From positions 3,152,001 to 3,216,000 of the forward strand of contig NC_016478.1 of the NCBI RefSeq assembly GCF_000226095.1: a DNA stretch of 64,000 bases, written 5' to 3'. This document shows positions 50,803 to 56,286 of the stretch, piece after piece; position 1 is the stretch's first letter; the number at the start of each line of letters is the position of its first letter. Below the pieces are notes generated by a model. It saw only the letters and a list, made by a program, of their open reading frames with translations, ran no database searches and was not told the DNA's origin. The position numbers and the translations under genes are program-made. Source of the DNA: Thermothelomyces thermophilus ATCC 42464. Taxonomy: Eukaryota; Ascomycota; Sordariomycetes; Sordariales; Chaetomiaceae.

Positions 50803-51961
50803 ATTTGTTATCAAAAAGATGGGATTAGGATACCCGGTATTAAATATTGAACAAAATAAGGGTTGAGATATAACAACAAATCTGCTCACATTGCGATCAA
50901 AGCACTCTTGTGCAACGGAAAACCGCGGCTGCCATCTGAGGCGTAATCTTCCAACCACGAGGCGGCACGAGAGCTGCGAATAGTTTCCGATACAGACAGG
51001 AGTTATTGTCTCTAAGGCATTTGAGTTGCTAATTGAAATTTTGCACTTCTTCTGATGGCAATCCTCCTGTCTTTCTTCGCATGGGTCCGTCTTTTCTCGA
51101 GCTCCCGCAACGAGAGCCTGCTTCGGCACGATTATTTGGCCGTGACCTATTTTATTTAGAGCATGACATTGTATCTGTGCGGCAAAGCCACACCAGGAAA
51201 TTAAGGTACTCTGCATGTTTTGCATTCCTCGGGTATCTCTCTCCCTCTCCTTTCCTAACCCCCCCCCCCCCCCAAAAAAAAAAAAAATTGCGGATAATCT
51301 CAAAGAGCAGAACGATTACCGGTTCGTTACCTAGACCAGGGTCAGGGGAAGGTAGGCCTCTGGAAGCGAGTGACCAAGGTTACGCTGCATACGAAAGTGT
51401 CATGCATGATGGCTAGGACTAGACTACGGAGTAGTGTAGGTCTTCTCAGCGAAAAACGACGCGAGGGACAACGGTAGGAGAGAGGCGGGTGGGGGGGGAA
51501 ATGTCCGAAGAGTCTGCAAGGCACGAGGGCTCGGCTGGGGTGGTCTAACTACACTCCGGAACTCTGGTAAGACGAGTCTGCAAACCCTGGCGTGGTGCAC
51601 TGCACAGGAGGCCGTGGGATTCTTTTCGGGGAAACTGCCTGTCGGTCATATAACTAACTACCAGACGTTATGGAGGAAATCAAAAGGAAGTCCAAGTAAA
51701 ATCAGAAAACAAAAGTTCCGATTTGGTAATTATGCATTTTGAAGAAAAGAGAAAGAGCGCATTCTCATGGCACTCAAAACCCTGTCAAAAAAAAAGGTGT
51801 ATACAGAATGTGAAACCAGAAAGATGATGACCCTTCGACCGTCTATCAAAAACTTTCAACCACAAAACCACCGCGCCACCGTTTGTTAATGAGCCAACCC
51901 CTTTATGAAACAGCAGATTTTGAAACCTCCCCCAGGCGCCAGGGCACCGATGACCGCTTAT
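50803..51961. other. Intergenic region between convergent genes
   Basis: About 1.16 kb with no supported gene. A C15-A14 homopolymer lies at 51259-51287. A CTACGGAGTAGTG repeat copy lies at 51424-51436. The rest is probably 3' UTRs. Confidence 0.5.
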
Positions 51962-52959
51962 TTAGCACTTGACGGGCAGGGCCTTGCTGGAGCCGGGCTT
52001 CTTGGCCAGGGCGACCTCGTTCTTGCGGCGAGTGACGAGGCCGGGCAGGACCTTGCCGCCGCCGTGGACCCACTTGGGGAGCTCCTCGCTGAGGACCTTG
52101 TTGACGTTCTCGCCCTTGTTAAGACGCTTGACGAGCTGGGAGCTCTGGGCGGCGCCGCAGCCGACGTTGAAGGACCAGCTGACGAGGGCACCGAACTGGT
52201 TGTAGTTGAGGACCGCCTTGCTGTTGAGCATGTTGGTGATGCACTTCTCGAATTTCTGTTCGCCGGGAGGAAGTGGGCTTGGTCAGCACAGCACCTTTCA
52301 TTGTCCCAAATTGATCTCGCTTCTCGTGATGGACAGTGAGAGGGGACTATTATTAGGGGGAGGTGTGCTTACCCTCATGTCCTCGGCCAGCAGCTTCTTG
52401 CCGTCAGCCGTGGAGAGCGGGATCTTGTACTTGACTTCGGCGCACTTGGGCTTGGTGCACATGTGGCCGTAGCCGACCGTAGCGTGGCCGGTAGCATCGG
52501 TGTCTTTTTCGGAAAGCAACAAGTCAGCCAGATGATTACACGAGTAATGAATCTCGACGAGTGAAAACGGTGGATCGACGTACAGATCTTGGAGCGGAAG
52601 CCCTCAGACTTTGCGATCAGGTCAACGGTCGCCGAGTTCGACTTGGGGGCAGCGCAGGTCGAGCCGCCGCCGCCGCTGGAGCCGCACTTCGTGGTGACGA
52701 AGCCGCTCTTGCCGGTCTTGACGTAGTAGTCGGAGACGTAGCAGCCATCCTGGGTCTTATCCCAGATGTTGTAGCCATTCACCGAGGTACCCGTAGTCTG
52801 GCAGCTAATCTTGATATCGAAACCCTTCTTGTAGGTCTTCTTGACGGGGTAGCTGGTGCCGGGGCCGGAGCGGCAGCTAAGGCCGCCGTTGGCGGTGACG
52901 GGGTAGGCGGCGGCAGGGGCCAGGATAGAGGCGAGAGCGGCGAGGATGTAGAACTTCAT
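51962..52959 (-). CDS. Secreted GH24 lysozyme with N-terminal SH3-like domain
   Basis: Three minus-strand exons (52959-52584, 52503-52373, 52255-51962) give 266 residues. Introns are 80 and 117 bp; joins read GFRSKI-YTDATGHATVGYGH and LAEDMR-KFEKCITN. A signal peptide (MKFYILAALASILAPAAA) precedes an SH3-like cell-wall-binding module (about 18-92, LSCRSGPGTSY...YVKTGKSGF), a Gly/Ser linker (SSGGGGS) and a GH24 phage-type lysozyme domain. The catalytic set is complete with T4 lysozyme spacing: E119 (AKSEGF), D128 and T134 in YTDATGHATVGYGH. A conserved NYNQFGALVSWSFNVGCGAAQ motif is near the end. GH24 enzymes cut the MurNAc-GlcNAc bond of peptidoglycan, so this should act on bacteria outside the cell. 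It is divergent from the CHAP gene, with which it shares about 92% of the SH3 module. Fungal GH24 with SH3-like modules are known. Confidence 0.93.
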
Positions 52960-54175
52960 TTTGCCGGTAATTAGTAAGAATTGGGAAACGAAGATGGTGT
53001 TGTTGACTATTCGAAGAGGAAGGAGGAGAATGGATCTAATTAGAAATATTCAGCTGAAGTCGAAGATGATAGGAAAAGTCTGGAATGAGAGGAAGTTGTT
53101 GGTGTTGAGCGAGAATGGGTGTGATTTCGTCGGACAGCGACGCCGTCTATATACACGATGCCCTCGCCGTTGGTCTCCCCGAGATGGAGAAGTATGGGGT
53201 GTCGATCATGCCGTCTTACCTCAAAGTTCACGATGCTGTTTCTGGAGGACTTGTGGTGGGTGCCCTCTTTCCCTGGCCGGTATTGGTTTAGGACAAATCG
53301 GGTCCGGGGTCGACGGCCTGAAGTTGTTCCTGGTTTACATGCGAGATCTATTCTCAGGATCGATTGCGGGGCGGGCTTACGCTCGCTGGGTTAGCGGACA
53401 ATGGCATGTTGACGCATGAGTGGAACGTTGATCGACCCTTGGAGGGTCGCATGCCTCGGTAGAGAGGACTTGGCCGAAGAGAAGCGAGACTGCCATAGAT
53501 CTTCGGTTCTTGGGCAAGCCACCCACGACTTGCATCTGCCCTCTCAGCCTCTCAGCGAACCCAGGAATTCCCCAATTCGGGCTGGTGCGTGCTGCAGCGG
53601 AAGGAACCGGTTGGAGATCGGCCAGATTCATGCTCCCAAATCGGCGGGTCCAAAATCCTGAAATAGCCCTATGGGATGGATATGGCTTGGATTCTGACCA
53701 ATCAGACAGGTCACGGCGCTTGACAAGCCTCGTTCTCCTGCCCGAATTAGACACCGGACTCCCCTTGTACTCCACGTAAACGGGCCCGATGCTACCCTGA
53801 CGTTGCCTGATCTCGCTGAAACCCTGGTCGGTTGCTCCACCGTTGCGTTCTTCCAGAATAAGCTCGACTTATTGTGAGCAGGTTCGGACGACATTGCTGC
53901 AGAGACACCGAACCTAGCGTTTTAGCTTACTACACTACTCTAGTAGGTCTTCGTCGTTCTTGTCGATGGGGTCTGGATCTCCTTAGACCGACGGCTCGAC
54001 GCTGGCATAGGGATCATCTCAGAAGCAGCACCATATTCGTGTTGTTTCAGGAAACAGGAAGAGTTTTTGGTAGTGAGTTATAGCCCAGGCGGCAGCGACC
54101 GATGTAGCTCTTGCCTAGCTGCATCGATGCAATAGTGTTGATGAAGTGGCCTAAGGCAAATCCAAGAGCGCGTTC

Positions 54176-54216
54176 TTTTTTTTTTTTTTTTTTTTTTGGG
54201 GGGGGGGGGGGGGGGG
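54176..54216. repeat. Homopolymer tract T22-G19
   Basis: A run of T is directly followed by a run of G. Such tracts are unstable, and exact length may be uncertain in the assembly. Confidence 0.8.
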
Positions 54217-54639
54217 AGGTGGCATACATTAATATCGAGCCTTAACTCGCATGGAAACGAGGTTCCGAAGCCAGTGGGGGATGTCAGGCAACTATCTGGT
54301 GAGCGAGACAAGGCGTTCATCTTCCCACGGTCAACATACCGCGACTCAATGTGGTCAACACAGGCAACTACTGAAAATTCTACACATGCGCAGTTACTGA
54401 TGTGAGTATCTCCTAAGGGAAACTTTGGTTGTCTCGCATGTAGTGTAGTACCTGAGTGCTGCAGCGAGGTCTTTCATGAGCGGCTCGAGTGTGGTTGGTG
54501 ATTTTTTGATCTTGGTTTCCGTCTGTTATTGGCTCGTCCCATAAACGAGTGACAAGTAGTTTGCCGAGCCCACTGCTTACCCTATGCTGCTACGTGCAAT
54601 CCATAGTTCGGATAAATACTTGGTATGTAGTTAGTGTAC

Positions 54640-54655
54640 GGATTACATAATTACT
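54640..54655. repeat. TGTACGGATTACATAA repeat copy
   Basis: The core matches TACGGATTACATAA near 5669 and TATGGATTACATAG in the 35.2-kb cluster. Confidence 0.5.
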
Positions 54656-55497
54656 ATGTTTGGTGAACTCGCTGCGCCGCGAAGCTGGGGCTCCACCAGA
54701 AATCATGCTTATTTTCCACACTAACTCAAGACAACTCCACGCTTTGCGTCTGTGCTCGAATCAACGAGCTTCTCAATCAATCGAGTTGGGCGTGAGCAGA
54801 ACACGTGTTTCTGGCACGAACATGACGATGTCCTTACCCTACATAGCAGGTCTTTCGGGATGCTATGTACCTATGTTTTACCATCCTCTCGCGGGCATGA
54901 TAAGCAAGCACCTAAATTAAGATTGCCGGGACTGCTATTGGGCGGCCTGTTCCATACCTCAGGGTAGCATTGGAGCTTCCTTTCCTGGATGGGACTAGGG
55001 GTTTCTCCATGCAGCCCACTCGCTCTCAGTGCCGTTGGGTGTCATCGATCGGACAAATCTGCCCGTTCCTGACAGATGGTATGCGCAAGGGTGCCATGAG
55101 CTGCAATCTCCCGCCTGCGCTTCCTGCAAATCACAGGGGGCAGCTGTGTTCGCCATCTTACTGCCTCTTCCGGTACATTCTACACACATACACTCCGGAC
55201 TATACCGCGCAATGGAACGAGTACCGGCAAGAGCAGGGCTGAGCATTCACCAGTTCTCGGGCAGCGACTGCGCGTTCCGTTCGTTACAAATTCGAACTCT
55301 CAAAATAAGTCTCTGGTTTTTGACAGTTCAACAAGTATAAAGAAGTCGACAATCTCGTCGATCGTCAAGCTCGAAAAAGTCATTCACTCAGACACACTCA
55401 GCACACTCACTTCCTTCGAGCACCACCACTTCAACACTTTCCTCTTTTCTTTCTTCTTCTTCTTCTTCTCTTCCACCTTCGGCAACACTCCTTCACC

Positions 55498-56286
55498 ATG
55501 AAGTTCGCCCTTTTCGCTGCCCTCTTCGAGGCCGTGGCCGTCACGGTCACCAGCGCCTATCCCGTCACCGCCAACGGCGGGCTTAGCTGCCGCTCCGGCC
55601 CCGGCACCAGCTATGCCGTCAAGAAGACCTACAAGAAGGGTTTCGATGTCAAGATCAGCTGCCAGACCACTGGCACCTCGGTCAACGGCAACAACATCTG
55701 GGATAAGACCCAGGATGGCTGCTACGTCGCCGACTATTACGTCAAGACCGGCAAGAACGGCTTTGTGACCAGCAAGTGCCCTGCTAGCGGCGGCGGTGGC
55801 GGCGGTTCCACCAAGCTTCCCGGCCCCGTCAAGAACGACTATCCCTACAAGAACAACTGCGGCGGCGTTGACCCCTGGAGATACTACAAGTGCCGTACGT
55901 TTCTGCCTCTCTCCCCTCTCCCCCCACATCTCGGTGGATGTGTGGCCGACTAACAAGCTTGTCATGTAACAGAGTGCACCTCCTTCGTGGCGTGGCGCAT
56001 CAACGAGCGCCTGGGCATCAAGTTCCACAACATGTACAAGGGCGTCAACTGGGGCAATGCCAATACCTGGGACGATGCCGCCAAGCGCACCGGCGTCAAG
56101 GTCGACAAGACTCCCAAGCCCGGCGCTATTGCTCAGACCAACGCCGGCCGGTACGGCTACGTCGCCTGGGTCACGGCCGTCAATGGCAACAAGGTCACCA
56201 TCGAGGAGTACAACTGGGCCAAGCGCGAGGGCTATGGCACCCGCACCGTCGACAAGAGCACCTTCAACTACATTCACCTCAAATAA
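55498..56286 (+). CDS. Secreted CHAP-domain protein with N-terminal SH3-like domain
   Basis: Two exons (55498-55894, 55973-56286) give 236 residues. The 78-bp intron (GTACGT donor) joins YYKC to QCTSFVAWR. A signal peptide (MKFALFAALFEAVAVTVTS) precedes an SH3-like module (about 20-94), a Gly6 linker, and a CHAP domain (about 110-236). CHAP proteins are NlpC/P60-type Cys peptidases or amidases that cut peptidoglycan cross-bridges or stem peptides. The catalytic Cys (C134, QCTSFVAW) is present, as are NWGNANTW and PGAIAQ. The His expected in the GHVAWV motif is Tyr here (GYVAWV, Y195, codon 56158-56160). That is one base from His (CAC to TAC), so the copy may be inactive, a binding-only protein, or may use another residue. 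It pairs with the divergent lysozyme gene and shares its SH3 module, so a joint role in attacking bacterial walls is plausible. Confidence 0.93.

What the first reader, a model, noticed from the sequence alone, without database searches (positions are those of the whole stretch)
51962..56286. Divergent lysozyme and CHAP genes share a nearly identical SH3 module
The secreted GH24 lysozyme (minus) and CHAP protein (plus) have unrelated catalytic domains, but the module from AYPVTANGG to its last Cys differs at only 6 of 75 residues by my count. The DNA (52908-52684 versus 55555-55779) differs at about 19 of 225 bases, roughly 92% identity, many of the changes silent. The modules form an inverted repeat about 2.6 kb apart. 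This points to recent module duplication or gene conversion giving a two-enzyme, one-binder kit that could cleave both glycan and peptide parts of bacterial walls.
Basis: partly seen in the sequence, partly recalled or inferred. Interest (0 to 1): 0.75.

Follow-up and report, generated by a model that had tools for sequence, protein, structure and literature searches.

The report
Two enzymes sharing one homogenised binder
In this heat-loving fungus and several relatives, two neighbouring genes for unrelated bacterial-wall enzymes carry nearly the same wall-binding piece, which appears to be copied between them species by species, and in this genome one of the two enzymes seems to have lost a residue it needs to work.

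Summary
The host is Thermothelomyces thermophilus. The gene pair is old. Over 18 pairs from different fungi, the two SH3 modules of one species resemble each other more than chance pairing gives (0 of 100,000 permutations): T. fergusii 0/75 differences, Corynascus similis 2/75, T. thermophilus 6/75, against 9-16/75 between orthologues of these three. A by-gene tree is rejected. Three dispersed SH3 copies checked show no such signal. I read this as repeated, mostly non-crossover gene conversion confined to the module, not recent duplication. It is not universal: 6 of 18 pairs are not homogenised and 4 are intermediate. Silent-site evidence inside T. thermophilus is modest, because codon bias explains most DNA identity.

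The 'two-enzyme kit' is doubtful here: the CHAP protein has tyrosine where the other 119 of 120 aligned homologues have the catalytic histidine, its only deviation at 54 conserved columns. GH24 keeps its catalytic residues. Fungal SH3-GH24 muramidases and module sharing among wall hydrolases are published (PMC10394673); my searches listed no paper on the pairwise homogenisation.

The parts
51962..52959 (-). GH24 (phage-type lysozyme) gene, 3 exons (52959-52584, 52503-52373, 52255-51962), 266 aa: signal peptide, SH3-like module, Gly/Ser linker, catalytic domain
   Evidence: gene model; Pfam PF00959 2.6e-40; 8b2s_A 3.8e-88; only GH24 match found in the genome. The first intron ends in an unusual AAG acceptor, inferred not proven
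52684..52908 (-). SH3-like cell-wall-binding module of the GH24 gene (75 codons)
   Evidence: Cys spacing 24/20/19 equals that of the solved T. saccata domain (positions from PMC10394673)
55498..56286 (+). CHAP gene, 2 exons (55498-55894, 55973-56286), 236 aa: signal peptide, SH3-like module, linker, CHAP domain (MYCTH_2085328)
   Evidence: gene model; Pfam PF05257 1.4e-17; 100% to P0002; only CHAP match found in the genome
55555..55779 (+). SH3-like module of the CHAP gene (75 codons), inverted copy of 52684-52908
55975..55977 (+). Codon of the presumed catalytic Cys134 of the CHAP domain, kept
   Evidence: C in 119 of 120 aligned CHAP proteins
56158..56160 (+). Codon TAC, Tyr195, at the position of the catalytic His of the CHAP domain
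   Evidence: H in 119 of 120 aligned proteins, Y only here; aligned to GHVA of 2lrj, 9eum, 2k3a, 9euf and 9r7g
52960..55497 (.). Intergenic stretch between the two start codons; both genes are transcribed away from it (divergent pair)
   Evidence: gene models

Best explanation
This is a divergently transcribed pair of secreted peptidoglycan-directed proteins, a GH24 muramidase and a CHAP amidase/endopeptidase, each with the N-terminal four-cysteine SH3-like wall-binding module of fungal lysozymes. The pair is old, but the ~225-bp modules are re-homogenised by ectopic, mostly non-crossover gene conversion between the two inverted copies, repeatedly and independently in several lineages (the pattern is shown at the protein level; the DNA mechanism is inferred). 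Conversion stops at the module edges because nothing beyond them is homologous, so signal peptides, promoters and catalytic domains evolve separately while both proteins keep a matching wall-binding surface. In T. thermophilus the CHAP catalytic His is replaced by Tyr, so the likely working state is one active lysozyme plus a binder with little or no CHAP activity (inferred).
For: Permutation over 18 pairs: mean within-species cross-gene distance 0.180 against 0.277 (sd 0.0115), 0 of 100,000 as low. By-gene topology rejected: dlnL 181 over 19 pairs; dlnL 73 with only Thermothelomyces/Corynascus constrained. Simulation under the no-conversion tree: own partner mutually nearest in 9 of 19 pairs against 1 in each of 500 simulations; distance drop 0.095 against a maximum of 0.032. 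Five of 19 pairs are sisters with support 95-100: T. thermophilus, C. similis, T. fergusii, Humicola, Monosporascus (tree printed). A one-residue insertion at column 8 is in both genes of 4 species and in neither gene of the other 15; 13 private residues are shared by both genes of a species against 1.4 expected, 3 of 100,000 permutations as high. Control: NlpC-linked modules of T. thermophilus and Humicola and the GH184-linked module of T. terrestris are not closer to their own species' CHAP and GH24 modules (ranks 16/18, 18/19; 15/18, 12/19; 13/18, 18/19). A signal-peptide motif is in 12 of 18 CHAP and 0 of 18 GH24 proteins, so no exchange is seen (the motif was chosen after looking). In T. 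thermophilus, AT-ending codons are shared by GH24 and CHAP (p 0.002) but not with the NlpC copy (p 0.45, 0.51). His to Tyr.
Against: No DNA of other fungi was available, so silent-site conversion tracts could not be shown. In T. thermophilus the silent identity is only about 1.5-2 sd above codon-usage expectation, dS is 0.31-0.34, and the differences are not clustered into tracts (p 0.12, 0.46). Six of 18 pairs (Rhypophila, Apodospora, P. didyma, P. australis, Dactylonectria, Cladorrhinum) are not homogenised, five of them with both genes apparently on one contig, so linkage is not sufficient; four more are intermediate. The column-8 insertion is absent from the CHAP of Corynascus novoguineensis, so it is not a fixed clade marker. 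The Tyr could be a sequencing error, or another residue could serve. Co-expression and wall binding are untested here.
Confidence: 0.78

Rival explanations
1. Parallel selection without conversion: both modules face the same bacterial wall ligand, so they accept the same substitutions in each species.
For: The loop aligned to the triglycine-contacting loop (columns 4-11) matches within species more than chance, 118 of 152 cells against 79 expected; in T. thermophilus codon bias explains most silent identity.
Against: T. fergusii is 75/75 identical, including four residues private to it among the 19 pairs; a one-residue insertion is shared by both genes in 4 species; AT-ending codons are shared in T. 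thermophilus. Each change would have to happen twice.
Confidence: 0.12
2. Recent duplication of the module from one gene into the other in the T. thermophilus lineage.
For: High identity with sharp edges in this genome.
Against: Both genes carry the module at the same N-terminal place across many genera, including Monosporascus outside Sordariales (order recalled).
Confidence: 0.04
3. Active two-enzyme kit, with Tyr195 an assembly error or tolerated (a question separate from conversion).
For: At the other columns conserved at 95% or more the T. thermophilus CHAP has no deviation, as expected of a functional gene; His is kept in the other 119 of 120 aligned proteins.
Against: The window and the database protein agree on Tyr (though they are probably the same assembly); CHAP enzymes are named for Cys and His.
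Confidence: 0.22

Closest known systems
Fungal SH3-like CWBD GH24 muramidase (Trichophaea saccata, PDB 8b2s; PMC10394673)
   Same: 4-Cys SH3-like module, short Gly/Ser linker, GH24 domain; aligns over residues 20-266. Removing the module lowered the OD-drop from 0.50 to 0.17 in that paper (Table 2).
   Different: That paper does not mention CHAP in its main text and, in the sections I read, does not treat gene neighbours or conversion.
SH3-like module sharing among fungal wall hydrolases (amidase, C40, M23, GH24, GH73, GH184; PMC10394673 Fig. 5 legend)
   Different: Here two of them are divergent neighbours whose modules are matched within species.
Recurrent homogenisation of inverted repeats, Saccharomyces flip/flop region (PMC9731477, abstract read)
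   Same: Inverted repeats kept alike by continual homogenisation over long times.
   Different: There 4-kb repeats holding whole genes and repeated inversion; here ~225 bp inside two otherwise unrelated genes, and no sign of net inversion in the signal peptides.
Bacterial CHAP hydrolases (S. saprophyticus 2k3a, organism recalled; PcsB 9r7g)
   Same: CHAP sequence family; Cys, Glu and Asn positions kept.
   Different: Catalytic His is Tyr in the window protein.

Membership tests
[quoted passage not shown]
   Cys at module positions 12, 36, 56, 75: spacing 24/20/19, the same as the paper's; all four invariant in the 8 modules. The disulfides themselves were not tested
[quoted passage not shown]
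   8b2h 2.9e-32, 8b2g 1.8e-28, 8b2f 8.3e-27
[quoted passage not shown]
   needs protein
GH24 lysozyme | Catalytic Glu with Asp at +9 and Thr at +15 (T4 spacing, recalled) | tested here: met
   E119, D128, T134; same residue in 120, 115 and 115 of the 120 listed homologues
[quoted passage not shown]
   PF05257 1.4e-17; Cys134, C in 119 of 120
[quoted passage not shown]
   Tyr195; His in 119 of 120 aligned. Related by descent; I do not file it as a working CHAP enzyme
Concerted evolution by gene conversion | Paralogues more alike within species than orthologues between species | tested here: met
   holds in a subset of lineages
Concerted evolution by gene conversion | Silent sites homogenised along a tract | tested here: inconclusive
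   T. thermophilus only: 56 of 68 codons against 51.1 expected; AT3 sharing p 0.002; no tract clustering
Inversion between inverted repeats (flip/flop type) | Orientation switches that would exchange promoters and signal peptides | tested here: inconclusive
   indirect only: a signal-peptide motif is in 12 of 18 CHAP and 0 of 18 GH24 proteins, which speaks against exchange; orientation in other genomes was not seen

The most novel reading that the evidence does not exclude
The two inverted SH3 modules act as a self-homogenising targeting cassette: conversion keeps the wall-binding surface of two unrelated hydrolases alike while it changes from species to species, so both enzymes switch bacterial target together; in T. 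thermophilus one partner has become a catalytically dead binder that still shares and exchanges the module.
Probability: 0.25. Interest if true: 0.75.

Novelty: new variant of a known kind. Interest (0 to 1): 0.58.

Why it matters
Gene conversion is usually discussed between whole paralogous genes. Here it seems to act on one ~225-bp domain shared by two genes that are otherwise unrelated, repeatedly in several fungal lineages, with the putative target-binding loop changing in step. It gives a natural system to ask whether conversion keeps enzymes that attack the same wall aimed at the same ligand. The single lost catalytic residue in the reference genome of a fungus used in industry (recalled) also cautions against annotating this protein as a working peptidase.

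Tried and rejected
Recent module duplication: rejected because the pair with both modules occurs in many genera. DNA identity as proof of recency: weakened, since codon bias predicts 51.1 of the 56 identical codons. Patchy conversion tracts inside the module: no clustering, p 0.12 and 0.46. Exon shuffling: both modules lie inside exon 1 with no intron at either edge. Recombination with crossover: the signal peptides show no exchange. A bacterial or viral DNA source with the pair: viral contigs gave no relative; genome contigs gave one, a Nocardiopsis protein. Scan for bacterial-type promoters between the genes: not meaningful in a fungus. Literature: the searches listed no paper on homogenised SH3 modules in a fungal GH24/CHAP pair; only listings were seen, plus the papers named in the report.

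Pairs used and dropped: the two homologue searches listed only the best 120 of 506 (CHAP) and 120 of 495 (GH24). I took 18 pairs (17 named fungi including T. thermophilus, and one metagenome contig), matched by species name or contig length, one per species. Left out: Apiosordaria backusii (CHAP partial), Coemansia and Linderina (many copies), metagenome contig 46177 (second protein not classified), and species with only one of the two genes listed, including T. hinnuleus (GH24 only) and Chaetomium tenue, C. sepedonium, C. novoguineensis and Thermochaetoides (CHAP only). T. hinnuleus entered, C. sepedonium and C. novoguineensis, and all 120 listed CHAP proteins. I matched species by eye, so other usable pairs in the lists may have been missed.
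Full report
What is there. The window lies on contig 7 of a 38.74-Mb, seven-contig genome. Its CHAP protein is 100% identical to MYCTH_2085328 of Thermothelomyces thermophilus ATCC 42464. Two genes diverge from a 2.5-kb intergenic stretch: a three-exon GH24 gene on the minus strand and a two-exon CHAP gene on the plus strand. Each codes for a putative signal peptide (read from the sequence), a 75-residue module, a Gly/Ser linker and a catalytic domain. The modules differ at 19 of 225 bases and 6 of 75 residues, exactly as reported, and identity drops to chance outside them. The modules match the solved SH3-like wall-binding domains of fungal muramidases, which Pfam misses or scores below its cut-off in the three proteins of this genome. 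The genome searches find one GH24, one CHAP and three such modules; the third, on contig 3, sits on an NlpC/P60-like protein. Such searches give lower bounds.

Is the identity more than chance or codon bias? Homology is certain. Recency is not shown by the DNA of this genome alone. Of 68 degenerate codons for the same residue, 56 are identical; the codon usage of the three genes' other parts predicts 51.1 (sd 3.2), and of whole genes 49.3 (sd 3.4). dS is 0.31 (NG86) to 0.34 (YN00), against 0.60 and 0.69 (NG86) to the contig-3 copy. A sharper sign is the sharing of AT-ending codons: five shared, p 0.002, while neither gene shares them with the contig-3 copy more than chance (p 0.45 and 0.51).

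Comparison across fungi. Homologues of both proteins are listed from many Sordariales and from Xylariales, Hypocreales, Pezizales and Kickxellales (order names recalled). Locus tags are consecutive in T. fergusii, Thermocarpiscus and Monosporascus, and two apart in Humicola hyalothermophila. In 17 of the 18 pairs used both proteins come from one contig, judged by equal contig length; three of the 17 were so by choice (T. thermophilus is the window itself, Dactylonectria and MG15585 were picked by contig). The arrangement is therefore old and the module was not recently duplicated. Yet within T. fergusii the two modules are identical (0 of 75), in C. similis they differ at 2 and in T. thermophilus at 6, while orthologous modules of these three species differ at 9, 13 and 15 (CHAP) and 13, 13 and 16 (GH24). 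In an additive tree with an old split of the two genes, the summed cross-gene distance would not depend on which species are paired, so a permutation test is apt: observed mean 0.180, permuted 0.277 (sd 0.0115), 0 of 100,000 as low. The by-gene tree is rejected with dlnL 181 for 19 pairs and, constraining only Thermothelomyces and Corynascus, dlnL 73. Each of 500 simulations on the by-gene tree gives one pair whose own partner is mutually nearest, against nine of 19 observed; 0 of 500 reach the observed drop. Catalytic-domain trees of each gene were built for comparison; their species groupings differ in detail (T. fergusii joins Chaetomium in the GH24 tree, Humicola in the CHAP tree), so I do not lean on them.

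Where it fails. Rhypophila, Apodospora, Podospora didyma, P. australis, Dactylonectria and Cladorrhinum show no clear within-species likeness; Chaetomidium, T. terrestris, Achaetomium and metagenome pair MG15585 are intermediate. Linkage on one contig is thus not enough; Cladorrhinum's two genes are on different contigs. The column-8 insertion shared by both genes in four species is missing from the CHAP of C. novoguineensis. T. hinnuleus GH24 has a module closer to the T. thermophilus CHAP module (4 differences) than to the T. thermophilus GH24 module (6), and the T. thermophilus and T. hinnuleus GH24 proteins differ at 6 of 75 module residues and at 6 of the remaining 191 (counted from the alignment).

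Mechanism. Controls argue for exchange between the neighbours, not a species-wide trend: modules on NlpC (T. thermophilus, Humicola) and GH184 (T. terrestris) proteins, the three that could be tested, are not closer to their own species' pair than to others. Gene conversion fits the size: a review gives a minimal efficient segment of about 200 bp in yeast and says most follow-up studies reported mean tracts of 200-300 bp (PMC3924818, passages). The module is also short for repeat-induced point mutation, whose lower limit in Neurospora is about 400 bp (recalled; the RIP paper PMC12543289, passages, says that length, identity and periodicity of the repeats matter). A crossover between the inverted copies would exchange promoters and signal peptides between the enzymes. 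A signal-peptide motif recognised by eye is in 12 of 18 CHAP proteins and 0 of 18 GH24 proteins, so exchange is not seen; in the other six pairs the signal peptides are too diverged to tell. The loop whose T. saccata counterpart contacts triglycine (PMC10394673, Fig. 3 legend) matches between genes within species in 118 of 152 cells against 79 expected; the residue aligned to the contacting His8 is S/S, T/T and Q/Q in T. thermophilus, C. similis and T. fergusii, but differs between the genes in Dactylonectria, Humicola and P. didyma. This could reflect conversion alone or selection for a common target; I cannot separate them.

The two-enzyme claim. GH24 keeps Glu119, Asp128 and Thr134 (T4-type spacing recalled). 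The CHAP protein keeps Cys134, Glu211 and Asn213, but residue 195 is Tyr (codon TAC at 56158-56160), where the other 119 of 120 aligned proteins (the best 120 of 506) have His. It is the only departure at columns conserved at 95% or more (54 in the catalytic part), and eleven other fungi checked the same way have none. Solved CHAP proteins have His in the aligned GHVA motif in all five alignments printed (2lrj, 9eum, 2k3a, 9euf, 9r7g). CHAP stands for cysteine, histidine-dependent amidohydrolase/peptidase (PMC11345752, passages). The likely result is loss of most activity; a sequencing error cannot be excluded. So the kit in this genome is probably one muramidase plus one binder.

What is known. 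SH3-GH24 fungal muramidases, their structure, cell binding and activity, and the occurrence of the module on amidase, C40, M23, GH73 and GH184 enzymes are published (PMC10394673: results, methods 2.2, conclusions, and the first part of the legends and tables read). CHAP is not mentioned in its main text. Long-term homogenisation of inverted repeats is known from Saccharomyces (PMC9731477, abstract). I found no report of the present pattern in the searches.

Noticed in passing
L003:1447-2196 (G000 contig 3): Third SH3-like module of the genome, 75% DNA identity, fused to a diverged NlpC/P60-like domain (Pfam below cut-off) in a gene read as a single 249-aa open frame.
   Followed up: partly
window 51962-52959: No 100% match to the 266-aa GH24 protein was listed (best 95%, T. 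hinnuleus), so the gene may be unannotated, differently modelled or hidden in a 90% cluster; its first intron seems to end in AAG.
   Followed up: no
L009:311-2002 (Nocardiopsis sp. FR4): The one relative confirmed in the bacterial/archaeal collection: a protein with what look like four tandem SH3 modules and an NlpC/P60-like domain; a possible hint at a bacterial source.
   Followed up: partly
proteins P0005, P0008, P0242: Some relatives carry two tandem SH3-like modules; in P0005 the two differ at only 8 of 73 residues.
   Followed up: partly
protein P0103 (metagenome): A CHAP relative with Ala at the catalytic Cys column but His kept: possibly another inactive CHAP.
   Followed up: no
proteins P0035, P0039, P0043 (Coemansia): SH3-CHAP proteins of distant Kickxellales fungi are 67-71% identical to the window's, suggesting transfer between fungi, contamination or strong conservation.
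   Followed up: no
window 51254-51287 and 54186-54219: Homopolymer blocks (C then A; T then G) in inverted orientation on either side of the GH24 gene (repeat I2); probably chance low-complexity sequence.
   Followed up: no
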